Shown: in pieces, positions 35,131 to 64,000 of the stretch | Position numbering within the stretch: the stretch's first letter is position 1 | How the letters are laid out: every line of letters begins with the position of its first letter | NCBI GenBank assembly: GCA_964019135.1 | Contig: OZ025263.1 | Location: forward strand, 35,504,133 to 35,568,132 | DNA length: 64,000 nucleotides | Direction of reading: 5' to 3' | DNA from: Arenicola marina | Taxonomy: Eukaryota > Annelida > Polychaeta > Arenicolidae | Position numbers and translations under genes: made by a program | Notes under the pieces: generated by a model | Database searches by the model: none | Told to the model about the DNA's origin: nothing | What the model saw: the letters and a program-made list of their open reading frames with translations, nothing else

Positions 35131-35342
35131 TTCCACGGCCAAACGGGGCCTCCCTGGTGCAGTGGTTAGCGCACTAGACCGCAGATCAATAGGTCCTGGG
35201 TTCGAATCCGGGCTCGGGCACCTAATCTGGGGCGTGTTTCATTCCTTCATCCTTCATCGTCTCGGGAGGTTCCTTGGCCCAATTTAGCCTGTATGTGCAC
35301 AAAAGTGGCCTAAAACACCAACATTCCATTCCACGGCCAAAC
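35131..35342 (+). mobile_element. tRNA-Cys-like SINE with perfect 14-bp target-site duplications
   Basis: The body (about 35145-35328, 184 bp) starts with a tRNA-like head. It has an A-box-like GGTGCAGTGGTTAGCGC, a CCGCAGATCAA anticodon region resembling tRNA-Cys (GCA), and a B box GGTTCGAATCC. The acceptor stem does not pair fully and the T stem has a mismatch, so it is not a functional tRNA gene. A tRNA-unrelated 3' part follows, ending in a CATTCCATTCC-type tail. TTCCACGGCCAAAC occurs at 35131-35144 and again at 35329-35342 as a perfect duplication, which proves retroposition and suggests a young insertion. Confidence 0.88.
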
Positions 35343-35344
35343 TT

Positions 35345-35530
35345 CACACTACACCACACCCTTCACATCTCCACACCTCACCCCTCCACCATGCCACACC
35401 CCTCCACCACACCACACCCCTCCACCACACCACACCCCTACACCACACCACACCCGTCCACACCACACCCCTCCACCACACCACACCCCTCCACCACACC
35501 ACACCCCTCCACCACACCACACCCCATGTA
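35345..35530. repeat. Short CCACACC-type tandem repeat upstream of the SLC45 exon
   Basis: About nine copies of an 18-20 bp unit CCCCTCCACCACACCACA, ending about 30 bp before the splice acceptor of the first recognised SLC45 coding exon. It lies in the upstream intron or 5' region of that gene. Confidence 0.85.
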
Positions 35531-35558
35531 TCACACCCTGTCGCTCTTGTCCTTCCAG

Positions 35559-37342
35559 GCGCCGCCATTCCGTCGCCGCCATGTCTCTGGGCATTCTGAC
35601 GTCATCCATCCGGGTCTTCAAGAACCTGAAGGACGTGCAGTACGACCGGGTCTTGGGTCTCGTGTCGGCGAGACTGATCGACGAGAGCGGCGACTTCTCG
35701 CACATCCGGCGCCGCAAGACGCGGCTGGAGCTGGTGCTGCTCAGCTGCGCCGTGTGCGGCATTGAGTTCTGCTACGCGGCGGAGACGGCCTTCGTCAGCC
35801 CCATCCTGCTGCAGATCGGGGTGCCGGTCCTCTACATGACCCTGGTCTGGTGCCTCTCCCCCCTCCTCGGCTTCGTCCTCGTGCCGCTGCTCGGGTCGCT
35901 GAGCGACCGCTGCGGGTCCCGGATGGGGCGGCGCCGACCCTTCATCCTGCTGCTGTCGGCTGGCATCCTGGTGGGGCTCGTCCTGGTGCCCAACGGCCAG
36001 GCCATCGGGGTGCTGCTCGGGGACACCTACCCGGCCTGGGGGGGGCGGGGGCGGGGGCCAATCCACCCCCCGGGAGGACGCACCCACGCTCTACACCGAG
36101 GCCTACGCCCTGTCCTCCACGGGAGCCACGGCCAACGTGACGCCCTACGTGGACAGTGGCTGGCGGGTGGACGGGGCCATGGCTGGGGGGTCCGAGGGGC
36201 CTGGCGGGGGCGGGGACGGGGACTGGACCACGGCCCAGCCCCCCGGGTGGGTGGTGCCCGCCCCCACCCGATGAGCATCCTGTTCACGGTGTTGGGGGTG
36301 GTGGTGCTGGACTTTAGCTGTGACGCGTGCCAGTCCCCCTGCCGGGCGTACCTCCTGGACGTGACCACCCCCGAGGACCACCCCCCCCGGGCTGACCACC
36401 TTCACCGTGATGGCCGGCCTGGGGGGCGCGCTGGGCTACATCATGGGCGGGGTCGACTGGGCAGGCCACCACGTTCGGGGAGAGCCTGGGCAGCCACGTG
36501 CGCGTCGTCTCTTCACCCTGGTGCTGGTCATCTACGTGGCGTGCCTGGGTCTGACGGTGGCGGCGGTGCGCGAGGCCCCGCTGTCCGCCCTGGGGGTGCG
36601 GCCCGAGGAGCTCCAGGGCCGCAAGAAGAGGGTCCGCGGGGTCAAGTACAACAAGTTCACCAACGAGTCCTCCGAAAGTGAGACCGGGGAGGGGGGAGGG
36701 GGCGCGAGAAGGGGGCGGCGCGGGGGGAGGGGCGCGGCGCGGGGGAGGGGGCGCGTATGGATGAGAGGGAGGGGGAGCGCAGCCGGGTGCGGCCTCTGGG
36801 GGAGCAGGGGTCGGGGTACGGCACCCTGGCAGAAGACGCCCCGCCACCCCGGGGGGCCCACCCCGCCCCTCGCTACGACGGCGGGGTCAACGGGTTCACG
36901 ACCCCCGACCCCAGAGCCCACCAAGGTCGTGACCTATGACCTACCGCGTGACTCGCAAGACCTCGCGAGTGCTCACCAAAACGAGGCTCAGGCGCCCGGC
37001 AACCACGTGGCCAACCAGGGCAACGAGGCCGACGGCCCTCCGCACCACGTGGCCGAAGTGACCTTGAAGATGTACCTAGTGTCCATAGTGCGCATGCCCA
37101 GGTCGCTGCTCATCCTCTGCCTCACCAACCTGTTCTGCTGGATGTCCCTGGTGTGCTACTCCCTCTACTTCACGGACTTCGTGGGCCAGGCGGTGTACGG
37201 GGGCGACCCCCTGGCGCCCCCCGCCTCCCCGCCCGCGCCCTCTACGACAAGGGGGTCCGCGTGGGCTCCCTCGGCATGTCCCTCTACTCCCTGTCCTGCG
37301 CCTTCTACTCACTCAGCATCGAGAGGCTCGTCAGGAAGTTCA
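35559..37342 (+). CDS. SLC45: SLC45-family transporter, first recognised coding exon
   Basis: This exon encodes the N-terminal and central part of an SLC45 (MFS) proton-coupled sugar transporter of the plasma or organelle membrane. A pyrimidine-rich acceptor (CTTGTCCTTCCAG) ends at 35558, and the chosen ATG is at 35581. Visible hallmarks are EFCYAAETAFVSPILL-type TM1 (about residues 50-77), TM2 with WCLSPLLGF, the MFS loop SDRCGSRMGRRRPF (about 108-121), TM3, and LGVVVLDFSCDACQSPCRAY from 36271. Then come AGLGGALGYIMGGVDW, a long Gly/Pro-rich loop, MPRSLLILCLTNLFCW and YFTDFVGQAVYGGDPLAPP, ending in LYSLSCAFYSLSIERLVRKF at a GTAAGT donor. The reading frame changes at least six times, mostly at G/C homopolymers (near 36040, 36265, 36385, 36455-36505, the loop, and 37225), while the protein stays family-like. 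Uncorrected assembly indels are therefore likelier than decay. The loop could hide an intron. The paralogue is uncertain. Confidence 0.88.
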
Positions 37343-37735
37343 GTAAGTACCCCACCCCCCAGCCTAGAAAATACCGAGAAAATTGAAACTATTGATATGG
37401 TAATTTTGAGTGGATAGCAAGGTGTGTACATGTACTAGAGAGTGAAGTATTTCGATTAGATAACTTGGTACATTAAGTGGCCATTGACAAACGCCCATTG
37501 TTTGTTCCATGTATACTTCCATATACACCATGGACGCATGTGCTGCCAGCCGCTTATTCAGAAGATCGTTAATTGACCATTTGATTTTAGGCCAAAATTG
37601 TCAGGAGAAAATCGAATTAATTTTCTGTGTACCAACAATTAAAGTGAAAAAGGCACATATTGATTTTGAATGCATAAATGTCTTGGTATATTGCATATTG
37701 TGGTAGTAATTTGGACGTCTTGGTTGTCATGGCAG
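37343..37735 (+). other. SLC45 intron 1
   Basis: GTAAGT donor at 37343 and a CATGGCAG acceptor ending at 37735. The splice is phase 1 (A + GG) and reads RKF-R-AKPVYICSQ, the expected family sequence. The interior is AT-rich, with nothing else recognised. Confidence 0.85.
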
Positions 37736-37911
37736 GGGCCAAGCCGGTGTACATCTGCAGCCAGCTGGTGTACACGGTGGGGGCGGCCCTGATGGCGGCC
37801 ATACGCCACCCCATGGCTGTCATACTGCTCTCGCCCTGCGCCTGGCATCATGTACGCCACGCTCTTCACCATGCCCTACCTCCTGGTGCTCACTACCACT
37901 CTGTGGACATG
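37736..37911 (+). CDS. SLC45: SLC45-family transporter, second recognised exon
   Basis: It encodes AKPVYICSQLVYTVGAALMA, then a helix through AVILLSPCA, and MYATLFTMPYLLVAHYHSVDM, the conserved SLC45 segment around TM9-TM10 with its Pro-Tyr pair. It ends with ATG|GTAAGTCAG, phase 0. Relative to the family and to the tandem copies downstream, the exon carries one extra base near 37845 (CGCCTGGCATC) and one missing base near 37888 (CTGGTGCTCAC, where copies have CTGGTGGCTCAC). The two cancel, so the frame is restored. Sequencing error is the likely cause, but a real compensated pair is possible. The last 46 bases (37866-37911) are the source of the intron array that follows. Confidence 0.88.
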
Positions 37912-40900
37912 GTAAGTCAGTGTACGCCACACCCTCCCTCACCATGCCCTACCTCCTGGTGGCTCACTACCACTCTGTGGACATGGTAAGTCAGTGTACG
38001 CCACCCCCCCGCCCTCACCATGCCTTACCTCCTGGTGGCTCACTACCACTCTGTGGACATGGTAAGTCAGTGTACGCCCCCCCCCCCCCGCCCTCACCAT
38101 GCCCTACCTCCTGGTGGCTCACTACCACTCTGTGGACATGGTAAGTCAGTGTACGCCCCTCCCCCCGCCCTCACCATGCCCTACCTCCTGGTGGCTCACT
38201 ACCACTCTGTGGACATGGTAAGTCAGTGTACGCCCCCCCCCCCCCCGTCACCATGCCCTACCTCCTGGTGGCTCACTACCACTCTGTGGACATGGTAAGT
38301 CAGTGTACGCCACCCCCCCCCCCCGCGTCACCATGCCCTACCTACTGGTGGCTCACTACCACTCCGTGGACATGGTAAGTCAGTGTACGCCACCCCCACA
38401 CCTCACCATGCCCTACCTACTGGTGGCTCACTACCACTCTGTGGACATGGTAAGTCAGTGTACGGCCCCCCCCCGTCACCATGCCCTACCTACTGGTGGC
38501 TCACTACCACTCTGTGGACATGGTAAGTCAGTGTACCCCCCCCCCACTCACCATGCCCTACCTACTGGTGGTTCACTACCACTCTGTGGACATGGTAAGT
38601 CATTCCCCCCCCTCACCATGCCCTACCTACTGGTGGCTCACTACCACTCTGTGGACATGGTAAGTCAGTGTACGCCACCCCCCCCCGTCACCATGCCCTA
38701 CCTACTGGTGGCTCACTACCACTCTGTGGACATGGTAAGTCAGTGTACGCCCCCCTGCCCTCACCATGCCCTACCTACTGGTGGCTCACTACCACTCTGT
38801 GGACATGGTAAGTCAGTGTACGCCACCCCCCCCCCCACCCCCGGCACCATGCCCTACCTACTGGTGGCTCACTACCACTCTGTGGACATGGTAAGTCAGT
38901 CTACGCCCCCCCCCCGTCACCATGCCCTACCTACTGGTGGCTCACTACCACTCCGTGGACATGGTAAGTCAGTGTACGCCACCCCCCCCCCCCTCACCAT
39001 GCCCTACCTACTGGTGGCTCACTACCACTCTGTGGACATGGTAGGTCAGTGTACGCCACCCCCTACCCGTCACCATGCCTTACCTACTGGTGGCTCACTA
39101 CCACTCTGTGGACATGGTAAGTCAGTGTACGCCACCCACCCCCCCTCACACCATGCCTTACCTACTGGTGGCTCACTACAACTCTGTGGACATGGTAAGT
39201 CAGTGTACGCCCCCCCCCCCGTCACCATGCCCCTACCTACTGGTGGCTCACTACCACTCTGTGGACATGGTTAAGTCAGTGTACGCCACCCCCCGTCACC
39301 ATGCCCTACCTCCTGGTGGCTCACTACCACTCTGTGGACATGGTAAGTCAGTGTACGCCCCCCCACCCCTCCCCCAACCCCCCCCCGCCCGTCACCATGC
39401 CCTACCTACTGGTGGCTCACTACCACTCTGTGGGACATGGTAAGTCAGTGTTCGCCACCCCCCCCCGTCACCATGCCCCTACCTACTGGTGGCTCACTAC
39501 CACTCTGTGGACATGGTAAGTCAGTGTTCGCCACCCCCCCGCCCGTCACCATGCCCTACCTACTGGTGGCTCACTACCACTCTGTGGACATGGTAAGTCA
39601 GTGTACGGCCCCCCCCCCCCTCACCATGCCCTACCTCCTGGTGGCACACTACCACTTTGTGGACATGGTAAGTCAGTGTACCGCCACCCCCCCCCCCCCG
39701 TCACCATGCCCTACCTACTGGTGGCTCACTACCACTCTGTGGACATGGTAAGTCAGTGTACGCCACCCCCCCCCCCCATCACCATGCCCTACCTACTGGT
39801 GGCTCACTACCACTCTATGGACATGGTAAGTCAGTGTACGCCCCCCCCCCCTCACCATGCCCTACCTCCTGGTGGCTCACTACCCACTCTGTGGACATGG
39901 TAAGTCAGTGTACGCCCCCCCCCCTCAACATACCCTACCTACTGGTGGCTCACTACCACTCTGTGGACATGGTAAGTCCGTGTACGCNNNNNNNNNNNNN
40001 NNNNNNNNNNNNNNNNNNNNNNNNNNNNNNNNNNNNNNNNNNNNNNNNNNNNNNNNNNNNNNNNNNNNNNNNNNNNNNNNNNNNNNNNNNNNNNNNNNNN
40101 NNNNNNNNNNNNNNNNNNNNNNNNNNNNNNNNNNNNNNNNNNNNNNNNNNNNNNNNNNNNNNNNNNNNNNNNNNNNNNNNNNNNNNNAGTCAGTGTACGC
40201 CCCCCTCCCCCCCTCACCATGCCTTACCTACTGGTGGCTCACTACCACTCTGTGGACATGGTAAGTCAGTGTACGCCACCCCCCCCCCCACCCCCCTGCC
40301 CTCACCATGCCCTACCTACTGGTGGCTCACTACCACTCTGTGGACATGGTAAGTCAGTGTACGCCACCCCCCCCCACCCCCCTGCCCTCACCATGCCCTA
40401 CCTACTGGTGGCACACTACCACTCTGTGGACATGGTAGGTCAGTGTAGGCCACCCCCCCCCACCCCCCCCCCCTCACCATGCCCTACCTACTGGTGGCTC
40501 ACTACCACTCTGTGGACATGGTAAGTCAGTGTACGCCGCCCCCCCTCACCATGCCCTACCTAGGTGGCACACTACCACTCTGTGGACATGGTAGGTCAGT
40601 GTACGCCCCCCTCCCCCCCCTCACCATGCCCTACCTACTGGTGGCACACTACCACTCTGTGGACATGGTAAGTCAGTGTACGCCACCCCCCCCCCCTCAC
40701 CATGCCCTACCTACTGGTGGCTCACTACCACTCTGTGGACATGGTAAGTCAGTGTACGCCACCCCCCCCCCCTCACCATGCCCTACCTACTGGTGGCTCA
40801 CTACCACTCTGTGGACATGGTAAGTCAGTGTACGCCACCCCCCCCCTCACCATGCCCTACCTACTGGTGGCTCACTACCACTCTGTGGACATGGTAAGTC

Positions 40901-41580
40901 AGTCTGCGCCCTCCCCCCCCCTCACCATGCCCTACCTACTGGTGGCACACTACCACTCTGTGTACATGGTAGGTCAGTGTACGCCCCCCTCCCTCACCAT
41001 GCCCTACCTACTGGTGGCACACTACCACTCTGTGGACATGGTAGGTCAGTGTACGCCCCCCTCCCCCCCCCTCACCATGCCCTACCTACTGGTGGCACAC
41101 TACCACTCTGTGTACATGGTAGGTCAGTGTATGCCCCCCTCCCTCACCATGCCCTACCTACTGGTGGCACACTACCACTCTGTGTACATGGTAGGTCAGT
41201 GTACGCCCCCCTCCCTCACCATGCCCTACCTACTGGTGGCACACTACCACTCTGTGTACATGGTAGGTCAGTGTACGCCCCCCCCCCCTCACCATGCCCT
41301 ACCTACTGGTGGCACACTACCACTCTGTGTACATGGTAAGTCAGTGTACGCCCCCCCCCCTCACCATGCCCTACCTACTGGTGGCACACTACCACTCTGT
41401 GTACATGGTAGGTCAGTGTACGCCCCCCCCCCCCTCACCATGCCCTACCTACTGGTGGCACACTACCACTCTGTGTACATGGTAGGTCAGTGTACGCCCC
41501 CCCCCCTCACCATGCCCTACCTACTGGTGGCTCACTACCACTCTGTGTACATGGTAGGTCAGTGTACGCCCCCCCCCCTC
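37912..41580 (+). repeat. Tandem array of SLC45 exon 2 end plus splice donor (~76-bp unit)
   Basis: About 45 visible copies (more in the gap) of a 69-96 bp unit, mostly 74-80 bp. Each contains 46 bases of coding sequence from the end of exon 2, encoding TMPYLLVAHYHSVDM, then the splice donor and the first intron bases GTAAGTCAGTGTACGCC, then a C-run of variable length and TCACC. Most length variation lies in the C-run. No AG stands between the C-run and the coding part, so the copies carry donors without evident acceptors. Early copies keep the exon's CTCCTGGTGG. Later copies have CTACTGGTGG, and from about 40900 most have GGCACACTAC, TGTACATG and GTAGGT. Open frames across the array (up to 323 codons) are by-products. 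Confidence 0.97.
39988..40187. other. Assembly gap, 200 N
   Basis: Exactly 200 N inside the exon-derived array, with the unit interrupted on both sides. The copy number of the array is therefore unknown. Confidence 0.99.
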
Positions 41581-41899
41581 ACCAATGTCAGGCACCACTG
41601 TGTGCGCTGTGTATGCTATGTACAATGTGTCTTGTCTGAACGTCAAGATGGCGTCGTCAAACGATAAGAAATGATTTAGGCAATTCACTAAATGTTCATG
41701 CATGTGAATGAGTATCTATATTTGTTGAGTAATTTTGACATGATCATGAATTTAAATGGTCTATTCCATTCCCCTGAAATATTTAATTATCTCTGACGAG
41801 TACAAAAAGCATTTCCATAAATTGTGTATGGCGAATATGGTCGTTGACTGTGTGTTTACTGTGTGTGGTTGCCACGTGGTGTCTCTGTCTGTCCGGCAG
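41581..41899 (+). other. SLC45 intron 2, distal part
   Basis: Ordinary AT-rich intron sequence after the array, ending in a pyrimidine-rich acceptor (CTGTCTGTCCGGCAG) at 41899. Nothing else is recognised. Confidence 0.8.
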
Positions 41900-42145
41900 T
41901 TTGAGGAGGGTCCCGGGGAGGGCGGCGAGGCTGGGCGGCGTCAGGGAAGCCGACCCATCCGCGGCCTGGGCACCGACATCGCCCTGGTGAGCAGCATGGT
42001 CTTCGTGGCGCAGTTCCTGCTGTCGGCCTGCATGGGGTCCATCGTGCACGCCACGGGCACCACCACCGCCGTCATCGTCACCGCCTCCATCCTCAGCTTC
42101 ATCGGCGCGCTGACCGCCACCAAAGTCATGTACCTGGACCTATAA
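41900..42145 (+). CDS. SLC45: SLC45-family transporter, last coding exon
   Basis: Phase 0 with exon 2. It encodes a hydrophilic loop FEEGPGEGGEAGRRQGSRPI, then RGLGTDIALVSSMVFVAQFL (TM11), the G-x-I-V-H-A-T-G-T-T-T-A turn and a last helix ending TATKVMYLDL, then TAA at 42143-42145. The order GLGTDIALVSS...AQ...TGTTTAV is typical of the C-terminal end of SLC45 proteins. No frame change is seen in this exon. The tail after the last helix is only a few residues long, shorter than in vertebrate SLC45A1/A4. A 67-bp array follows at once. Confidence 0.9.
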   Translation, partial: FEEGPGEGGEAGRRQGSRPIRGLGTDIALVSSMVFVAQFLLSACMGSIVHATGTTTAVIVTASILSFIGALTATKVMYLDL

Positions 42146-42159
42146 TAACGCCGTCCTGT

Positions 42160-45100
42160 ATGTCACGTGCCCTGAGCCTAGGATCAGCCTCTGGTACCTC
42201 AGCCCGGCGCCATGTGGATTGGCCAGTTGTATTGTGCCCTGAGCCTAGGATCAGCCGCTGGTACCTCAGCCCGGCGCCCTGTGGATTGGCCAGTTGTTTT
42301 GTGCCGTGAGCCTAGGATCAGCCTCTGGTACTTCAGCCCGGCGCCATGTGGATTGGCCAGTTGTATTGTGCCCTGAGCCTAGGATCAGCCGCTGGTACTT
42401 CAGCCCGGCGCCCTGTGGATTGGCCAGTTGTTTTGTGCCGTGAGCCTAGGATCAGCCGCTGGTACTTCAGCCCGGCGCCCTGTGGATTGGCCAGTTGTAT
42501 TGTGCCGTGAGCCTAGGATCAGCCGCTGGTACTTCAGCCCGGCGCCCTGTGGATTGGCCAGTTTTATTGTGCCGTGAGCCTAGGATCAGCCGCTGGTACT
42601 TCAGCCCGGCGCCCTGTGGATTGGCCAGTTGTATTGTGCCGTGAGCCTAGGATCAGCCTCTGGTACTTCAGCCCGGCGCCCTGTGGATTGGCCAGTTGTA
42701 TTGTGCCGTGAGCCTAGGATCAGCCGCTGGTACTTCAGCCCGGCGCCCTGTGGATTGGCCAGTTGTATTGTGCCGTGAGCCTAGGATCAGCCGCTGGTAC
42801 TTCAGCCCGGCGCCCTGTGGATTGGCCAGTTGTATTGTGCCGTGAGCCTAGGATCAGCCGCTGGTACTTCAGCCCGGCGCCCTGTGGATTGGCCAGTTGT
42901 ATTGTGCCGTGAGCCTAGGATCAGCCTCTGGTACTTCAGCCCGGCGCCCTGTGGATTGGCCAGTTGTATTGTGCCGTGAGCCTAGGATCAGCCGCTGGTA
43001 CTTCAGCCCGGCGCCCTGTGGATTGGCCAGTTGTATTGTGCCGTGAGCCTAGGATCAGCCTCTGGTACTTCAGCCCGGCGCCCTGTGGATTGGCCAGTTG
43101 TATTGTGCCGTGAGCCTAGGATCAGCCGCTGGTACCTCAGCCCGGCGCCCTGTGGATTGGCCAGTTGTATTGTGCCGTGAGCCTAGGATCAGCCGCTGGT
43201 ACCTCAGCCCGGCGCCCTGTGGATTGGCCAGTTGTATTGTGCCGTGAGCCTAGGATCAGCCTCTGGTACCTCAGCCCGGCGCCCTATGGATTGGCCAGTT
43301 GTATTGTGCCGTGAGCCTAGGATCAGCCTCTGATACCTCAGCCCGGCGCCCTGTGGATTGGCCAGTTGTATTGTGCCGTGAGCCTAGGATCAGCCTCTGG
43401 TACCTCAGCCCGGCGCCCTGTGGATTGGCCAGTTGTATTGTGCCGTGAGCCTAGGATCAGTCTCTGGTACCTCAGCCCGGCGCCCTGTGGATTGGCCAGT
43501 TGTATTGTGCCCTGAGCCTAGGATCAGCCTCTGGTACTTCAGCCCGGCGCCCTGTGGATTGGCCAGTTGTATTGTGCCGTGAGCCTAGGATCAGTCTCTG
43601 GTACCTCAGCCCGGCGCCCTGTGGATTGGCCAGTTGTATTGTGCCGTGAGCCTAGGATCAGCCGCTGGTACCTCAGCCCGGCGCCCTGTGGATTGGCCAG
43701 TTGTATTGTGCCGTGAGCCTAGGATCAGCCTCTGGTACTTCAGCCCGGCGCCCTGTGGATTGGCCAGTTGTATTGTGCCGTGAGCCTAGGATCAGCCTCT
43801 GGTACCTCAGCCCGGCGCCCTGTGGATTGGCCAGTTGTATTGTGCCGTGAGCCAAGTATCAGCCTTTGGTACCTCAGCCCGGCGCCCTGTGGATCGGCCA
43901 GTTGCATGGTGCTGTGAGCCTAGGATCAGCCGCTGATACCTCAGCCCGGCGCCCTGTGGATTGGCCAGTTGTATTGTGCCGTGAGCCTAGGATCAGCCTC
44001 TGGTACCTCAGCCCGGCGCCCTGTGGATTGGCCAGTTGTATTATGCCGTGAGCCTAGGATCAGCCTCTGGTACCTCAGCCCGGCGCCCTGTGGATTGGCC
44101 AGTTGTATTGTGCCGTGAGCCTAGGATCAGCCTCTGGTACCTCAGCCCGGCGCCCTGTGGATTGGCCAGTTGCATGGTGCCGTGAGCCTAGGATCAGCCG
44201 CTGATACCTCAGCCCGGCGCCCTGTGGATTGGCCAGTTGCATTGTGAGGTAAGCCTAGGATCAGCCTCTGGTACCTCAGCCCGGCGCCCTGTGGATTGGC
44301 CAGTTGTATTGTGCCGTGAGCCTAGGATCAGCGTCTGGTACCTCAGCCCGGCGTCCTGTGGATTGGCCAGTTGTGTTGTGCCGTGAGCCTTGGATCAACC
44401 TCTGGTACCTCAGCCCGGCGCCCTGTGGATTGGCCAGTTGCATTGTGCCGTAAGCCTAGGATCAGCGTCTGGTACCTCAGCCCGGGGCCCTGTGGATTGG
44501 CCAGTTGCATTGTGCCGTAAGCCTAGGATCAGCGTCTGGTACCTCAGCCCGGCGTCCTGTGGATTGGCCAGTTGCATTGTGCCGTAAGCCTAGGATCAGC
44601 CTCTGGTACCTCAGCCCGGCGCCCTGTGGATTGGCCAGTTGTATTGTGCCGTGAGCCTAGGATCAGCGTCTGGTACCTCAGCCCGGCGTCCTGTGGATTG
44701 GCCAGTTGTATTGTGCCGTGAGCCTAGGATCAGCGTCTGGTACCTCAGCCCGGCGTCCTGTGGATTGGCCAGTTGTATTGTGCCGTGAGCCTAGGATCAG
44801 CGTCTGGTACCTCAGCCCGGCGCCCTGTGGATTGGCCAGTTGTATTGTGCCGTGAGCCTAGGATCAGCGTCTGGTACCTCAGCCCGGCGTCCTGTGGATT
44901 GGCCAGTTGTATTGTGCCGTGAGCCTTGGATCAACCTCTGGTACCTCAGCCCGGCGCCCTGTGGATTGGCCAGTTGCATTGTGCCGTGAGCCTAGGATCA
45001 GCCTCTGGTACCTCAGCCCGGCGCCCTGTGGATTGGCCAGTTGTATTGTGCCGTGAGCCTAGGATCAGCGTCTGGTACGCCAGCCCGGCGTCCTGTGGAT

Positions 45101-48100
45101 TGGCCAGTTGTATTGTGCCGTGAGCCTTGGATCAACCTCTGGTACCTCAGCCCGGCGCCCTGTGGATTGGCCAGTTGTATTGTGCCGTGAGCCTAGGATC
45201 AGCCTCTGGTACCTCAGCCCGGCGCCCTGTGGATTGGCCAGTTGTATTGTGCCGTGAGCCTAGGATCAGCGTCTGGTACCTCAGCCCGGCGCCCTGTGGA
45301 TTGGCCAGTTGTATTGTGCCGTGAGCCTAGGATCAGCCTCTGGTACCTCAGCCCGGCGCCCTGTGGATTGGCCAGTTGTATTGTGCCGTGAGCCTAGGAT
45401 CAGCGTCTGGTACCTCAGCCCGGCGTCCTGTGGATTGGCCAGTTGTATTGTGCCGTGAGCCTAGGATCAGCCTCTGGTACCTCAGCCCGGCGCCCTGTGG
45501 ATTGGCCAGTTGTATTGTGCCGTGAGCCTAGGATCAGCCTCTGGTACCTCAGCCCGGCGCCCTGTGGATTGGCCAGTTGTATTGTGCCGTGAGCCTAGGA
45601 TCAGCGTCTGGTACCTCAGCCCGGCGTCCTGTGGATTGGCCAGTTGTATTGTGCCGTGAGCCTTGGATCAACCTCTGGTACCTCAGCCCGGCGCCCTGTG
45701 GATTGGCCAGTTGTATTGTGCCGTGAGCCCAGGATCAGCCTCTGGTACCTCAGCCCGGCGCCCTGTGGATTGGCCAGTTGTATTGTGCCGTGAGCCTAGG
45801 ATCAGCCGCTGGTACCTCAGCCCGGCGCCCTGTGGATTGGCCAGTTGTATTGTGCCGTGAGCCTTGGATCAACCTCTGATACCTCAGCCCGGCGGCCTGT
45901 GGATTGGCCAGTTGTATTGTGCCGTGAGCCTTGGATCAACCTCTGATACCTCAGCCCGGCGCCCTGTGGATTGGCCAGTTGTATTGTACCGTGAGCCTTG
46001 GATCAGCCTCTGATACCTCAGCCCGGCGCCTTGTGGATTGGCCAGTTGCATTGTGCCGTGAGCCTAGGATCAGCCGCTGGTACCTCAGCCCGGCGCCGTG
46101 TGAATTGGCCAGTTGTATTGTGCCGTGAGTCTTGGATCAACCTCTGGTACCTCAGCCTGGCGCCCTGTGGATTGGCCAGTTGTATTGTGCCGTGAGCCTA
46201 GGATCAGCCTCTGGTACCTCAGCCCGGCGCCCTGTGGATTGGCCAGTTGTATTGTGCCGTGAGCCTAGGATCAGCGTCTGGTACCTCAGCCCGGCGTCCT
46301 GTGGATTGGCCAGTTGTATTGTGCCGTGAGCCTTGGATCAACCTCTGGTACCTCAGCCCGGCGCCCTGTGGATTGGCCAGTTGTATTGTGCCGTGAGCCT
46401 AGGATCAGCCTCTGATACCTCAGCCCGCCGCCCTGTGGATTGGCCAGTTGTATTGTGCCGTGAGTCTTGGATCAGCCGCTGGTACCTCAGCCCGGCGTCC
46501 TGTGGATTGGCCAGTTGTATTGTGCCGTGAGCCTAGGATCAGCCTCTGGTACCTCAGCCCGGCGCCCTGTGGATTGGCCAGTTGTATTGTGCCGTGAGCC
46601 TAGGATCAGCGTCTGGTACCTCAGCCCGGCGTCCTGTGGATTGGCCAGTTGTATTGTGCCGTGAGCCTTGGATCAACCTCTGGTACTTCAGCCCGGCGCC
46701 CTGTGGATTGGCCAGTTGTATTGTGCCGTGAGCCTAGGATCAGCGTCTGGTATCTCAGCCCGGCGTCCTGTGGATTGGCCAGTTGTATTGTGCCGTGAGC
46801 CTAGGATCAGCCTCTGGTACCTCAGCCCGGCGCCCTGTGGATTGGCCAGTTGTATTGTGCCGTGAGCCTAGGATCAGCCGCTGGTACCTCAGCCCCGCGC
46901 CCTGTGGATTGGCCAGTTGCATTGTGCTGTGAGCCTAGGATCAGCCTCTGGTACCTCAGCCCCGCGCCCTGTGGATTGGCCAGTTGTATTGTACCGTGAG
47001 CCTAGGATCAGCCGCTGGTACCTCAGCCCGGCGCCCTGTGGATTGGCCAGTTGTATTGTGCCGTGAGCCTAGGATCAGCCTCTGATACCTCAGCGCGGCG
47101 CCTTGTGGATTGGCCAGTTGTATTTTGCCGTGAGCCTAGGATCAGCCGCTGGTACCTCAGCCCGGCGCCCTGTGGATTGGCCAGTTGTATTGTACCGTGA
47201 GCCTAGGATCAGCCGCTGGTACCTCAGCCCGGCGCCCTGTGGATTGGCCAGTTGTATTGTGCCGTGAGCCTAGGATCAGCCGCTGGTACCTCAGCCCGGC
47301 GCCCTGTGGATTGGCCCGTTGTATTGTGCCGTGAGCCTAGGATCAGCCTCTGGTACCTCAGCCCGGCGCCCTGTAGATTGGCCAGTTGTATTGTACCGTG
47401 AGCCTAGGATCAGCCGCTGGTACCTCAGCCCGGCGCCCTGTGGATTGGCCAGTTGTATTGTGCCGTGAGCTTAGGATCAGCCGCTGGTACCTCAGCCCGG
47501 CGCCCTGTGGATTGGCCAGTTGTATTGTGCCGTGAGCCTAGGATCAGCCTCTGGTACCTCAGCCCGGCGCCCTGTGGATTGGCCAGTTGTATTGTACCGT
47601 GAGCCTAGGATCAGCGTCTGGTACCTCAGCCCGGCGCCCTGTGGATTGGCCAGTTGTATTGTGCCGTGAGCCTAGGATCAGCCGCTGGTACCTCAGCCCG
47701 GCGTCCTGTGGATTGGCCAGTTGCATTGTGCTGTGAGCCTTGGATCAGCCTCTGGTACCTCAGCCCGGCGCCCTGTGGATTGGCCAGTTGTATTGTACCG
47801 TGAGCCTAGGATCAGCCTCTGGTACCTCAGCCCGGCGCCCTATGGATTGGCCAGTTGTATTGTGCCGTGAGCCTAGGATCAGCCTCTGATACCTCAGCCC
47901 GGCGCCCTGTGGATTGGCCAGTTGTATTGTGCCGTGAGCCTAGGATCAGCCTATGGTACCTCAGCCCGGCGCCCTGTGGATTGGCCAGTTGTATTGGACC
48001 GTGAGCCTAGGATCAGCCGCTGGTACCTCAGCCCGGCGCCCTGTGGATTGGCCAGTTGTATTGTGCCGTGAGCCTAGGATCAGCCGCTGGTACCTCAGCC

Positions 48101-48962
48101 CGGCGCCCTGTGGATTGGCCAGTTGTATTGTACCGTGAGCCTTGGATCAGCCTCTGGTACCTCAGCCCGGCGCCCTGTGGATTGGCCAGTTGCTTTGTGC
48201 GGTGAGCCTAGGATCAGCCTCTGGTACCTCAGCCCGGCGCCCTGTGGATTGGCCAGTTGTATTGTACCGTGAGCCTAGGATCAGCCTCTGGTACCTCAGC
48301 CCGGCGCCCTGTGGATTGGCCAGTTGTATTGTGCCGTGAGCCTAGGATCAGCCGCTGATACCTCAGCCCGGCGCCCTGTGGATTGGCCAGTTGTATTGTG
48401 CCGTGAGCCTAGGATCAGCCGCTGGTACCTCAGCCCGGCGCCCTGTGGATTGGCCAGTTGTATTGTACCGTGAGCCTAGGATCAGCCGCTGGTACTTCAG
48501 CCCGGCGCCCTGTGGATTGGGCAGTTGCATTGTGCCGTGAGCCTAGGATCAGCCGCTGGTACCTCAGCCCGACGCCCTGTGGATTGGCCAGTTGTATTGT
48601 GCCGTGAGCCTAGGATCAGCCGCTGGTACCTCAGCCCGGCGCCCTGTGGATTGGCCAGTTGTATTTTACCGTGAGCCTAGGATCAGCCTCTGGTACCTCA
48701 GCCCGGCGCCCTGTGGATTGGCCAGTTTTATTGTGCCGTGAGCCTAGGATCAGCCGCTGGTACCTCAGCCCGGCGCCCTGTGGATTGGCCAGTTGTATTG
48801 TGCCGTGAGCCTAGGATCAGCCGCTGGTACCTCAGCCCGGCGCCCTGTGGATTGGCCAGTTTTATTGTGCCGTGAGCCTAGGATCAGCCGCTGGTACCTC
48901 AGCCCGGCGCCCTGTGGATTGGCCAGTTGTATTGTGCCGTGAGCCTAGGATCAGCCGCTGTT
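42160..48962. repeat. 67-bp minisatellite directly downstream of the SLC45 stop codon
   Basis: About 101 copies of a 67-bp unit containing GCCCTGTGGATTGGCCAGTT, GTATTGTGCCGTGAGCCTAG and GATCAGCCTCTGGTACCTCA. The first partial unit starts within about 15 bp of the TAA. Common variants are GCCGCTGG, GCGTCTGG, CTTGGATCAACC and TACCGTGAG, arranged in recurring blocks. Many 65-codon frames (three units long) appear at 67-bp phase steps and are not genes. The start of the array probably lies in the 3' UTR or just beyond it. Confidence 0.97.
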
Positions 48963-49679: not shown

Positions 49680-49685
49680 AATAAA
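49680..49685 (+). terminator. Candidate polyadenylation signal AATAAA (plus strand)
   Basis: AATAAA followed by a T/G-containing stretch. If the 67-bp array is transcribed, this could end a very long SLC45 3' UTR. It is equally likely to be a chance match or the end of an unseen transcript. Confidence 0.2.
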
Positions 49686-49737: not shown

Positions 49738-50270
49738 CCAAGTACAGACTCAAGCTGTCAGTACATCTAACACAGACTCGAGCTGCAAGTACATCTAACA
49801 CAGACTTAAGCTGTCAGTACATCTAACAGATTCAAGCTATAAGTACATCTAACAAAGACTTAAGCTGTAAGTACATCTAACATAGACTACAGCTGTAAGT
49901 ATATCTAACATAGACTAAAGCTGTAAGTACATCTAACATAGACTAAAGCTGTAAGTACATCTAACACAGACTCAAGCTGTAAGTACATCTAACATAGACT
50001 AAAGCTGTAAGTACATCTAACACAGACTCAAGCTGTAAGTACATCTAACACAGACTCAAGCTGTAAGTACATCTAACACAGACTTAAGCTGTAAGTACAT
50101 CTAACCCAGACTCAAGCTGTAAGTGCATCTAACACAGACTCAAGCTGTAAGTACATCTAACACAGACTTAAGCTGTAAGTACATCTAACACAGACTCAAG
50201 CTGTAAGTGCATCTAACACAGCCTCAAGCTGTAAGTACATCTAACATATACTAAAGCTGTATATACATGT
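49738..50270. repeat. 28-bp minisatellite
   Basis: About 19 copies of a 28-bp unit containing CACAGACTCAAGCTGTAAGT then ACATCTAA. Variants include CATAGACTAAAG and CAGACTTAAG. It is AT-richer than the other arrays. Confidence 0.95.
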
Positions 50271-55165: not shown

Positions 55166-56464
55166 CGTATGCCAAATACATGATCCAAATATATATTGAC
55201 TGAGGGCCTTATAATTGGTCCAATGGGATATGTTGACAATACTTGGTAAATCTCGCACGTTTAAGTAAAAGCGGAATTGACAATTTATTAAGACCACTCA
55301 TGTGTTGGCCTAAAATTTTGCCATTTTCGGTCAGCTTAAGTAACCACGTCCTAAAATTTCAATCGAGCTGATTGCTGTTATCGTTTAGCCAGGGAACGTT
55401 AGGGAACATCCGCCATGCTCATAAATATATCAATAACATTCATAAGTTTTATGTTTACAAAAAAACTAATTATATAGGCCTAATTGGGCTTTATTCTGAA
55501 TCACAATCATTCAGTTGATCAAATCAAAAAGAAAAAGTGAAACATAAACATAAAATGAACACATTTTAAGATTATACTGGGTCTGGAGACTCAATAAGAT
55601 CGATTAAACTTTGTATGGTCGCTTTCATGCGAGCCACTGATATGGTTAATCTTTAATCAAATAATTACACGTCAGGTTATTAGGAGAGTTCATCAATATA
55701 AGAGTGTTATGCGATGCAAACAGTTCTATACTTATCAATTTAATAATTCATTGCGTAGTGATTACAACTGAAATTCAATCAAAACGTATTATTACGGAGG
55801 CGGTGGGGAGGAGAAGGTAACCGTGTCGGCGGCATTTGATGTCCGAATGACTAATTGGGTAGAACTTCTTGCGACCATGCAGCCAACAGCCGGCCTCTGA
55901 TTGGTTGACTTCTATAAACATCGGGTTGCTAAGCGCGTCAACGTGGACGAGTCCATTCTTGTTTCTGTACTGAAGGGGGTCTTGTTTCCTTACGTGCTAA
56001 ATAACATCTCGCGGATACATAAAATTAATTATGATTCTCCGAATTCTTCTTTATTACTAAAAAAAGACCGCTTATCCGATGTCACGTTATTTCATAGCAA
56101 ACGACGTTATTTTGGCAGTTGCCTGTCAGCTTTGCAAATGAATACAAAGTGAATGTCATAATCCTGTCCTTTTATTGGTTAAAACTTGGATCACGTTGGA
56201 AACGTCCAATGTTTCATTTGGGCGAGGGAACTCTAGTTGTACACACTTTGAACAGGGGTGTGTGGGGGGGGGGGGTGGGGGCGAGGGGGGGATACGTTTC
56301 CCTATCTTCGCGATCAGGCGATTGGCATCCAGAATTTGTTGGAAATTTGGAGGAACGTTATCCGTACAACTGCTGATTCAACGCAAAGACCCTTTAAGGT
56401 TTGTTGAAATGGAATTTACGGCCAATAAGGGCAACAATCTCCGTACAAAGCATTGACTTTGATC
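55166..56464. other. AT-rich sequence, no gene recognised
   Basis: Mostly unique AT-rich DNA. A plus frame at 55901-56152 (83 codons) has no recognisable domain. A G-run stretch lies near 56262-56290. The part next to 56464 may be a decayed 5' extension of the LINE remnant that follows, but I cannot show it. Confidence 0.4.
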
Positions 56465-57480
56465 AGTTAAGGCAGCCTTTAGATTTAATCGTCTAATTCG
56501 GGAATTCGTGTGGAATAAAAAGAAACCTAGAATTGCCCTGTCTAAAATGGTCCAAACAGTCGATCTAGGGGGTATTAATCTCCCCCATATAGAGTCCATG
56601 ATGTTTGCGCTTAAAATTAGCTGGATACGAAGACTTGTGGTCAACGATGGGGCGTGGCAGCAATTGTTTTGTAAAACTATTTGTAGGGATAAATTATTAT
56701 GTTGGGACTTAGATCCAATTTCTCTTATTGAGTTATCCTTGACATCAAACCCCTTTTGGGGCGACGTCTTCAAGGCTTGGAGTAAATTCTTGGGAACACA
56801 AATTGAAGATATAAATGTTTTAGAATACCCGATTTGGAACACTTATTTTATGATAAACCCAAATCTGATTAGTAGGAAAGACGAAATGATCCAAAAGGGA
56901 TACATTTGTCCAGAAATACCAGATAAATATAAACTTTGTTGACTTCTACAGTCTTACCCACTGTATACCGCGAAACTGGAGAAACAAAATCACGACGTCA
57001 GGTAAAAAACTTTGTAAAGTAACTCGAAAGTGGGCAAATTTGATAATAAGAACGGCGCGGTTATGTAATTACAGTTATAAGTTTCTGGTCAAATCTATAT
57101 GCTACAGCAAAAAAAGTGAAGAACGGTGGTGTCAATCACTAAACGTTGATATAGAGGAAGCAACTTGGTGCCAGTATTATAAGTTACCATTACAATGTAC
57201 TGTTGAAGAAAAAAACAGAAGCTTTCAGTACCTTCTGCTTAATTTAGCATTGGTTACCAACCAGTTTTTGCATAAATGTAAAATAATTGACTCTGAGAAA
57301 TGTTCTTTTTGTGATACAGAGACTGAAACCATTCCACACTTTCTTTTTGATTGTATTTATGTAAGACATTTATGGTGTAAGATTTTTGATTGGTTGAATG
57401 ACAAATGCTTGACAACTGTGACTCCAACGCGTCAATCCTGTTTATTAGGGCAGCCTTAAAATTCCTCAATATTCGCGATA
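56465..57480 (+). mobile_element. LINE ORF2 C-terminal half, broken
   Basis: The first part (frame at 56508-56942) reads FVWNKKKPRIA, LGGINLPHIESM and ALKISWIRRL, the block after the reverse-transcriptase domain in L1/Tx1-like ORF2 (W-x-x-K-x-P-R-I, then G-G-x-x-x-P-x-x-E). The second part (57040-57459, another frame) reads ATWCQYYKLPL, NRSFQYLLLNLAL and the zinc knuckle CSFCDTETETIPHFLFDC. A stop and a frame change separate the two, and the reverse-transcriptase and endonuclease regions are absent. It is therefore a dead 5'-truncated copy. Its zinc-knuckle region resembles that of the minus-strand remnant at 34565-34928, so both probably belong to related lineages. Confidence 0.85.
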
Positions 57481-61419: not shown

Positions 61420-64000
61420 CTATTCTGGAGTCCGCCAAGAGGACGTCGACGGTATGTTGCATGCCGGGGGGCATGGGCTTGCACTTGCACCATTCGCATC
61501 CATTGGCGTCCTTCTGGAAGCCGTACTCGCAGGCCTTGCGGCAGCGTACCTTGGGGCAGTGCGTGGCGATATGACCCGCGGCGCACCGGCAGGTGGGGCA
61601 CCCGTCAGAGTCCGTCAACCGACCGTTCTCACAAAACTGGCGGCAAGCGATGGCGCGGCAGCCACCCCCGACACTTGGCTCACCTGCGCAGCGGCAGATT
61701 TCGCACCCATCCTTATCTTTCTGAAAACCATGTGCGCAAAACATGGCGCATCTGACTGCAGAACACTTTGGGGTTGGGGCTTCGTTGCAAGCACAGAATT
61801 CGCAGCCGTTGTCGTCTTTCTGGAAGCCATGTTCGCAGTGCATCATACACCTCACTGGAGAACACTCTGGGATTGGAGCTTCGTTGCAAGCACAGAATTC
61901 GCAACCGTTGTCGTCTTTCTGGAAGCCATGTTCGCAGTACATTCTACATCTGACCGGAGAACACTCTGGGGCGTCCTTGCATTCACACAAATGACAACCG
62001 CCCTCATCCTGCTTGAATCCGTGCTCACAGTACATTCGGCAGCGCTTTGGGGAGCACTCTGGGTGAAAGGGACCCTCGTTGCAAGCGCAGACTTCGCAGC
62101 CGTTGTCGTCTTTCTGGAAGCCATGTTCGCAGTGCATTCTACATCTGACTGGAGAACACTCTGGCGCTTCGTTGCAAGCACAGAATTCGCAACCGTTATC
62201 GTCTTTCTGGAAGCCATGTTCACAGTACATTCTACATCTGACCGGAGAACACTCTGGTGCTTCGTTGCAAGCACAGAATTCGCAGCCGTTGTCGTCTTTC
62301 TGGAAGCCATGTTCGCAGTGCATTCTACATCTCACTGGAGAACACTCTGGGCTTGGGGCCTCGTTGCAAGCGCAGACTTCGCAGCCGTTGTCGTCTTTCT
62401 GGAAGCCATGTTCACAGTACATTCTACATCTGACTGGAGAACACTCTGGCGCTTCGTTGCAAGCACAGAATTCGCAGCCGTTGTCGTCTTTCTGGAAGCC
62501 ATGTTCGCAGTGCATTCTACATCTCACTGGAGAACACTCTGGGCTTGGGGCCTCGTTGCAAGCGCAGACTTCGCAGCCGTTGTCGTCTTTCTGGAAGCCA
62601 TGTTCGCAGTGCATTCTACATCTGACTGGAGAACACTCTGGGATTGGAGCTTCGTTGCATGCACAGAATTCGCAGCCGTTGTCGTCTTTCTGGAAGCCAT
62701 GTTCACAGTACATTCGACATCTGACTGGAGAACACTCTGGCGCTTCGTTGCAAGCACAGAATTCGCAACCGTTATCGTCTTTCTGGAAGCCATGTTCACA
62801 GTACATTCTACATCTGACCGGAGAACACTCTGGTGCTTCGTTGCAAGCACAGAATTCGCAGCCGTTGTCGTCTTTCTGGAAGCCATGTTCGCAGTGCATT
62901 CTACATCTGACTGGAGAACACTCTGGCGCTTCGTTGCAAGCACAGAATTCGCAGCCGTTGTCGTCTTTCTGGAAGCCATGTTCGCAGTGCATTCTACATC
63001 TGACTGGAGAACACTCTGGAGCTTCGTTGCAGGCACAGAATTCGCAGCCGTTGTCGTCTTTCTGGAAGCCATGTTCGCAATACATTCTACACCTCACTGG
63101 AGAACACTCTGGGGTTGGAGCCTCGTTGCAAGCGCAGAATTCGCAGCCGTTGTTATCTTTCTGGAAGCCATGTTCGCAGTACATTCTACATCTGACCGGA
63201 GAACACTCTGGTGCTTCGTTGCAGGCACAGAATTCGCAGCCGTTGTCGTCTTTCTGGAAGCCATGTTCGCAGTGCATTCTACATCTGACTGGAGAACACT
63301 CAGGGGCGTCCTTGCATTCACACAAATGACAACCGCCCTCATCCTGCTTGAATCCGTGTTCGCAGTACATTCGGCAGCGCTTTGGGGAGCACTCTGGATG
63401 AAAGGGACCTTCGTTACAAGCGCAGACTTCGCAGCCGTTGTCGTCTTTCTGGAAGCCATGTTCGCAGTACATTCTACATCTAACTGGAGAACACTCTGGG
63501 GCGTCCTTGCATTCACACAAATGACAACCGCCCTCATCCTGCTTGAATCCGTGTTCGCAGTACATTCGGCAGCGCTTTGGGGAGCACTCTGGATGAAAGG
63601 GACCTTCGTTACAAGCGCAGACTTCGCAGCCGTTGTCGTCTTTCTGGAAGCCATGTTCGCAGTGCATGGCACACCGGACCGGGCTGCACTGAGCTACAAC
63701 CGATGCGGCACATTGGCAGGTGGGGCAGCCTTGATCGTCAAGGGCGAAGCCAGCCTGGCAGTACTTGAGGCAGCGCACCGGGCTGCAGTGGTCCTTGAAG
63801 GGTGGCGGGCTGCAGAGGCAGACTTCACAGCCCATGGCGTCCTTCTGGAAGCCATACGGACAGAACTTGCGGCACTGCCCGCGCGGAGCACAGGTGGGCT
63901 GTTCCTTGCACTGACAGACCTGGCAGCCACTGGCGTCGGCCTGGAAGCCGTAGGGGCAGTGCATGGCGCAGCGGACGGGGCTGCAGACCGCGCGGGGCCC
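61420..64000 (-). CDS. Multi-domain antistasin-like inhibitor, 26 repeats, 5' end beyond the window
   Basis: The open frame runs on the minus strand from the right window edge to the donor at 61420. It encodes 26 consecutive antistasin-like domains, each with six cysteines in the pattern C-x4-C-x3-C-x10-C-x2-C-x-C, for example CSPVRCRMYCEHGF then QKDDNGCEFCACNEAP. Domain 2 has one extra residue before its second Cys, and spacers are 4-9 residues. Antistasins are secreted inhibitors of factor Xa and other trypsin-like proteases. Domains 1-3 and 24-26 are diverged; 4-23 are near-identical. A two-domain block (CNEGPFHPE with CSPKRCRMYCEHGFKQDEGG) occurs three times, showing block duplication. 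Unit lengths of 93, 99 or 102 bases keep frame. Frame stays open and Cys-rich upstream of the Met at 63964 (AVCSPVRCA), so that Met is not the start. Signal peptide and start lie outside the window. Confidence 0.93.

What the first reader, a model, noticed from the sequence alone, without database searches (positions are those of the whole stretch)
37912..41580. Tandem amplification of an exon end with its splice donor inside the SLC45 gene
Intron 2 is filled by about 45 visible copies of the last 46 coding bases of exon 2 plus the donor GTAAGTCAG and a C-run. Minisatellites with a unit that spans a conserved coding segment and a consensus 5' splice site, next to the source exon, are very unusual. 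Every copy offers a decoy or alternative donor, and an ACCATG start-like context, without an evident acceptor. It could influence exon 2 definition, cause donor competition, bind U1 in bulk, or simply be tolerated. The functional idea is inference; the structure is seen directly.
Basis: partly seen in the sequence, partly recalled or inferred. Interest (0 to 1): 0.9.

Follow-up and report, generated by a model that had tools for sequence, protein, structure and literature searches.

The report
Mirage minisatellite at SLC45 splice boundary
An intron of an animal solute-carrier gene has filled up with dozens of tandem copies of the end of the neighbouring exon plus its splice signal, a kind of repeat already described in lancelet genes as a 'mirage', and most likely tolerated, not useful.

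Summary
Downstream of the 5' splice site at 37912, 45 visible units (plus a 200-N gap) fill most of the intron up to about 41584; 44 of 45 keep a donor core (33 ATGGTAAGT, 11 ATGGTAGGT, 1 disrupted). The host gene is SLC45A4-like. One correction: the unit is the last 62 coding bases plus 9 intronic bases; the C-run is an expansion inside the exon-derived part, and unit 1, next to the exon, lacks it. 'Very unusual' needs qualifying: tandem copies of exon-intron boundaries are described in amphioxus genes as 'mirages', and published RT-PCR is reported to suggest regular splicing. I found no sign that the copies are kept for function: donors are not more conserved than the rest, some units carry indels, unit lengths spread evenly over the three frames, and few AGs look like acceptors. 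Best reading: a neutral, locally expanding mirage minisatellite removed with its intron, with the exon's own donor used. Each of 27 later sites tested is predicted to give a premature stop. No RNA was available and the organism was not identified, so lancelet membership is unproven. New member of a known kind; modest interest.

The parts
35559..37342 (+). First visible coding exon of the SLC45A4-like gene (ATG at 35581), with several reading-frame breaks in the assembly
   Evidence: phmmer to SLC45A4 chains (9giu_A, 9ghz_A), best E 4.8e-39 for window 35314-36678 and 2e-18 for 36365-37414 in another frame; start placed after an acceptor-like CAG; frames
37736..37911 (+). Second visible coding exon (source exon); carries one extra and one missing base relative to the expected frame
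   Evidence: sequence; ends computed; aligned to SLC45A4 in a read-through query joined with exon 3; its own open frame matched no Pfam family
37851..37920 (+). Source segment of the repeat: last 61 bases of the exon as assembled (62 in the copies) plus donor GTAAGTCAG
37921..41584 (+). Mirage minisatellite: 45 visible units of 65-97 bases (median 76) and a truncated last copy
37921..37994 (+). Unit 1: no long C-run (longest 3); a stop is met at its end if the exon frame is read on
39988..40187 (.). Assembly gap of 200 N inside the array
40530..40599 (+). Unit 32: a 2-base deletion makes CCCTACCTAG, the most acceptor-like AG in the array by a simple pyrimidine measure
41585..41899 (+). Array-free 3' part of the intron with acceptor TGTCCGGCAG
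41900..42145 (+). Third visible coding exon, ends in a stop codon
   Evidence: SLC45A4 match E 2.7e-08 for an open frame that contains it; no Pfam family

Best explanation
This is a mirage-type minisatellite. A segment spanning the last 62 coding bases and first 9 intron bases was tandemly duplicated into the intron of an SLC45A4-like gene. It then expanded by local slippage or unequal exchange to 45 or more copies, and a C-run grew inside the exon-derived part of the unit. The copies are passengers: the authentic exon, which has a true acceptor upstream, is defined with its own donor, and the whole array leaves with the intron. Shown: structure, unit origin, likeness of neighbouring units, lack of extra donor conservation, scarcity of acceptor-like AGs. 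Inferred: the duplication mechanism, first-donor use and neutrality.
For: Unit equals exon end plus donor. Adjacent units differ by 1.25 bases on average against 2.03 for all pairs, 0 of 5000 permutations as low (1.34 and 2.12 before one misaligned unit was corrected). Distance to the exon rises along the array (Spearman 0.64, p 2e-6). Variant types in the coding-derived part are 4 synonymous of 10, against 28 of 126 possible (p 0.24), and 5 of 45 units have indels there, so no coding constraint is seen. Donor sites are not more conserved than the rest (3 of 9 against 10 of 42 variable, p 0.68). Unit lengths are 15/15/15 over the three frames. All 27 later sites tested give a premature stop. 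The window is 72% tandem repeat (from the TRF table). Published mirages have the same anatomy and are reported to splice regularly.
Against: No RNA data, so first-donor use is not shown. U1 pairing energy is the same for the exon donor and its identical copies (-9.1 kcal/mol) and close for GTAGGT (-8.8), and the exon donor is predicted to be less accessible than the median GTAAGT copy (0.0007 against 0.0028), so local sequence alone does not explain why it would win. Eight of 92 AGs in the array are at least as pyrimidine-backed as the true acceptor of the preceding intron. The organism is unidentified. The constraint tests rest on 51 sites and are weak. The premature-stop result depends on unit 1's length and on assembly accuracy.
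Confidence: 0.8

Rival explanations
1. The array acts on expression. Copies compete as decoy donors, and transcripts that use them carry premature stops and are degraded, so copy number tunes SLC45 output.
For: 44 of 45 units keep a donor core; 27 of 27 later sites tested (one of them the disrupted donor of unit 18) give a premature stop, and the 18 beyond the N gap, not computed, lie downstream of the same stop; U1 pairing of copies is close to that of the exon donor; the exon donor is not predicted to be more open than the copies.
Against: Donors are not preferentially conserved; 11 of 45 are GTAGGT, whose median predicted accessibility is about 300 times lower than that of GTAAGT copies; published mirages are reported not to disturb splicing.
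Confidence: 0.1
2. The gene is a decaying pseudogene and the array expanded because splicing no longer matters.
For: About six reading-frame breaks in the first coding exon, and one extra plus one missing base in exon 2 (judged by eye).
Against: Protein similarity to SLC45A4 persists on both sides of breaks; breaks in exon 1 appear to lie in stretches rich in G and C runs, where sequencing errors are likely (by eye); the splice sites and the last stop codon look intact; 45 of 45 copies keep the G that the exon lacks, so that loss is younger than the copies or an error.
Confidence: 0.12
3. The array is wholly or largely an assembly artefact.
For: A 200-N gap lies inside it, and C-run lengths are error-prone (general knowledge).
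Against: Units differ from each other in ordered, locally clustered ways, which repetition of one read would not give; both flanks are gene sequence of the same gene.
Confidence: 0.04

Closest known systems
Amphioxus 'mirage' minisatellites (Adh3, globins BflGb6 and BflGb9, troponin C, presenilin)
   Same: Tandem copies of an exon-intron boundary lying beside the source exon; many copies keep splice signals; in BflGb6, homogenisation of inner units and exclusion of the edge unit
   Different: Here 45 or more copies against 6 and 3 units in the two BflGb6 haplotypes; an internal C-run expansion; species unproven. The Adh3, troponin C and presenilin papers were not seen; they are known to me only through the passages.
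Lancelet PGBD5 60-bp and 108-bp tandem repeats (PMC3902484, passages)
   Same: Short tandem repeats abutting or overlapping splice sites; copy number differs between the two genome versions compared (2 against 7 and 3 against 6)
   Different: Far fewer copies; the authors' gene model there rests on predicted splice sites
Amphioxus VCBP3 intronic exon copies (PMC2632668, passages)
   Same: Complete or partial exons, some with canonical splice sites, lie in introns and resemble the adjacent coding exons
   Different: Not described there as a tandem minisatellite; the word 'mirage' does not occur in its main text
Intron gain by tandem genomic duplication (PMC4974935, potato RdRp; listing and start of abstract only)
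   Same: Tandem duplication within a gene
   Different: No new intron is shown here; the copies lie inside an existing intron

Membership tests
Mirage minisatellite | Tandem repeat whose unit spans an exon-intron boundary | tested here: met
   Unit is 62 exon bases plus 9 intron bases
Mirage minisatellite | Array adjoins the source exon | tested here: met
   Unit 1 starts at 37921, directly after GTAAGTCAG of the exon donor
Mirage minisatellite | Many units keep splice signals | tested here: met
   44 of 45 units with GTAAGT or GTAGGT after ATG
Mirage minisatellite | Regular splicing of the mRNA | not testable with these tools
   No RNA data
Mirage minisatellite | Length instability between alleles or cells | not testable with these tools
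   One assembly only; no genome is held for this window
Mirage minisatellite | Cephalochordate host (the cases seen) | tested here: inconclusive
   No animal genome collection at hand; an exact unit pattern is absent from viral contigs, which says little; organism inferred only from resemblance
SLC45A4-like transporter | Sequence similarity to SLC45A4 over N- and C-terminal parts | tested here: met
   9giu_A/9ghz_A are the top hits in 4 of 4 searches with pieces of the gene (a sucrose transporter also matches). In Pfam, 1 of 5 pieces matched at all: MFS_1, E 9.9e-08, 31.7 bits, under its cut-off of 33.4

The most novel reading that the evidence does not exclude
The array is a copy-number-tunable splicing valve: each copy is a usable donor that leads to a premature stop, so inherited or somatic copy number sets SLC45 output. 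Alternatively, if the host is not a lancelet, boundary-spanning mirages exist outside cephalochordates and are a general route of intron growth.
Probability: 0.12. Interest if true: 0.7.

Novelty: new member of a known kind. Interest (0 to 1): 0.35.

Why it matters
Arrays like this are natural tests of how a cell picks one 5' splice site among dozens of near-identical ones, and of how tandem duplication enlarges introns or seeds new exons. This case has many copies, a gradient away from the exon, and distal copies that have gained acceptor-like AGs, so it is a good object for long-read RNA work. It adds to a described class and does not open a new one.

Tried and rejected
Rejected: the C-run as a separate intronic part of the unit (exon sequence flanks it on both sides). 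Rejected: copies maintained as coding sequence (indels in 5 of 45 units, all three length classes, no significant synonymous excess). Judged unlikely, not excluded: units as complete pseudo-exons; 84 of 92 AGs have poorer pyrimidine tracts than either true acceptor looked at. My first count of variable donor sites (5 of 9, p 0.10) was inflated by the inserted T of unit 18; corrected to 3 of 9, p 0.68; the conclusion stands. Tried without a finding: Rfam scan of the window at gathering thresholds, no match; exact unit pattern in viral contigs, no match; copies of this gene's exons elsewhere in the window, none outside the mirage by short blastn at E 0.01 (exon 2 hits within the array region were filtered out); a bacterial promoter and terminator scan, irrelevant here. 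RNA folding: GTAGGT copies are predicted to be buried by pairing; in the 5' segment the copies (median 0.0035) fall within the quartiles of 20 shuffled-flank controls (0.0004-0.0043), and the exon donor (0.0007) is not more open than the copies, so I do not use folding to explain donor choice. Papers: 9 searches were answered, each with a capped or short listing. I opened passages of three papers: PMC3087553, PMC3902484 and PMC2632668. Other listed papers were not opened. I ran no search for mirages in SLC45 genes, so I do not claim that this locus is unpublished.

Full report
Observation. The intron that begins at 37912 is filled by a tandem array. A fuzzy search for the donor neighbourhood finds 46 copies, one at the exon end and 45 in the array; a stricter pattern finds 45 in the window, the exon's included, against 0.07 expected by chance; TRF reports the same array. 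A 200-N gap at 39988-40187 interrupts it. Because the window's only other gap is also exactly 200 N, the gap length looks like a placeholder and the true copy number is unknown.

Gene. Three visible coding exons (35559-37342, 37736-37911, 41900-42145) belong to an SLC45A4-like gene. The top hits are the solved chains 9giu_A and 9ghz_A, 'Solute carrier family 45 member 4' (the calls do not name the species): E 4.8e-39 and 2e-18 for two frames that overlap exon 1, 6.1e-12 for exons 2 and 3 read together (two frame breaks read over and exons joined by hand), and 2.7e-08 for the open frame that contains exon 3. Of five pieces of the gene sent to Pfam, one matched, MFS_1 just under its cut-off, and four matched nothing. 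The assembly has about six frame breaks in exon 1 and an extra and a missing base in exon 2 (judged by eye). The exon 1 breaks appear to lie in G- and C-rich runs, so sequencing error is likely, but a pseudogene is not excluded.

Unit. Cutting the array after each GTAAGTCAG gives units of 65-97 bases, median 76 (the unit at the N gap counted from its first complete start after the gap). Alignment to the exon shows that the unit begins with TGTACGCC(AC), which is exon sequence, and continues through the exon end to nine bases of intron. Of 45 units, 33 begin TGTACGCC or longer, 3 more TGTACG (one cut by the gap), and 9 otherwise. The C-run sits between two exon-derived stretches and replaces a few coding bases; unit 1, next to the exon, lacks a long C-run.

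Evolution of the array. Neighbouring units are more alike than random pairs (1.25 against 2.03 differences in 51 aligned bases, 0 of 5000 permutations as low). Differences from the exon increase with distance (Spearman 0.64): the first ten units average 0.9 and the last ten 3.4. Many distal units share GCA, TAC and GTAGGT variants. This is the pattern of local expansion, or of exchange with the exon at the near end; I cannot separate the two.

Constraint. Of ten substitution types in the 42 coding-derived bases, four are synonymous against 28 of 126 possible (p 0.24). Five of 45 units carry indels there. Unit lengths fall 15/15/15 over the three frames. Three of nine donor bases vary by substitution against 10 of 42 coding-derived bases (p 0.68; an earlier count of 5 of 9 was inflated by one misaligned insertion). 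These tests are small, but none points to selection on coding or on donors.

Splicing. 33 of 45 units have ATGGTAAGT, 11 ATGGTAGGT, and one is disrupted. Estimated U1 pairing is -9.1 and -8.8 kcal/mol for the two forms (U1 end recalled). Of 92 AGs in the array outside the gap, one (unit 32, ending at 40563) has an upstream pyrimidine fraction of 0.75, the value of this intron's true acceptor. Seven more have 0.625, the value of the preceding intron's acceptor, and all seven are the TAG of ATGGTAGGT in distal units. So the crude measure does not exclude weak acceptors at the far end. Reading exon 2 on into the array meets a stop at the end of unit 1. Of 46 sites, only the exon's own gives the full frame; 27 later ones tested give a premature stop (26 inside the array, 1 after the junction; one of the 27 is the disrupted site); 18 beyond the N gap were not computed but lie downstream of the same stop. 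This rests on unit 1 being 74 bases long. Folding shows GTAGGT copies more buried than GTAAGT copies, but the exon donor is not more open than the GTAAGT copies. That speaks against a simple accessibility explanation of donor choice; exon definition, in which the true exon alone has a proven-looking acceptor upstream, is my inference.

Known class. [quoted passage not shown] PMC3902484 (passages) adds PGBD5 and cites troponin C. PMC2632668 (passages) mentions exon copies with splice sites in introns of amphioxus VCBP3. The Adh3 paper itself is not held under the DOI that I recalled. The anatomy here matches this class on each of the three structural points that I could test. I could not name the organism: no genome is held for the window and no animal genome collection was available. 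The lancelet link is therefore by resemblance only.

Verdict. A well-formed mirage minisatellite with more copies than the cases whose numbers I saw, most likely tolerated and removed with the intron. New member of a known kind.

Noticed in passing
window 1-64000: TRF arrays cover 72% of the window, including a 17-bp unit array of about 21 kb at 11784-32752.
   Followed up: partly
window 42167-48960: About 101 copies of a 67-bp unit start some 20 bases after the SLC45 stop codon; an AATAAA lies after the array at 49680, so the array may be part of the 3' UTR.
   Followed up: no
window 61601-63800 (- strand): A frame without stops over the whole stretch read, with 23 matches to an antistasin-like Cys pattern; two copies of the repeat consensus match Pfam Antistasin, E 3.5e-20.
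   Followed up: partly
window 49744-50268: 28-bp repeat with a donor-like CTGTAAGTAC in its consensus, the only other one of 13 array consensus units checked; no exon recognised beside it.
   Followed up: no
window 56890-57456: Remnant of a non-LTR retrotransposon: zf-RVT, E 7.5e-08; the neighbouring frame 56463-56939 looks alike by eye but matched no Pfam family.
   Followed up: no
window 40530-40599: Array unit 32 has a 2-base deletion that creates an acceptor-like CTAG upstream of its donor, the kind of change that could make a new exon from a mirage copy.
   Followed up: partly
window 40972-41557: Seven distal units carry TAG inside ATGGTAGGT, so an acceptor-like AG overlaps their donor.
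   Followed up: partly
window 37736-37911: The source exon lacks a G that 45 of 45 array copies keep, and has one extra base some 50 bases upstream, so the two cancel in frame (by eye).
   Followed up: partly
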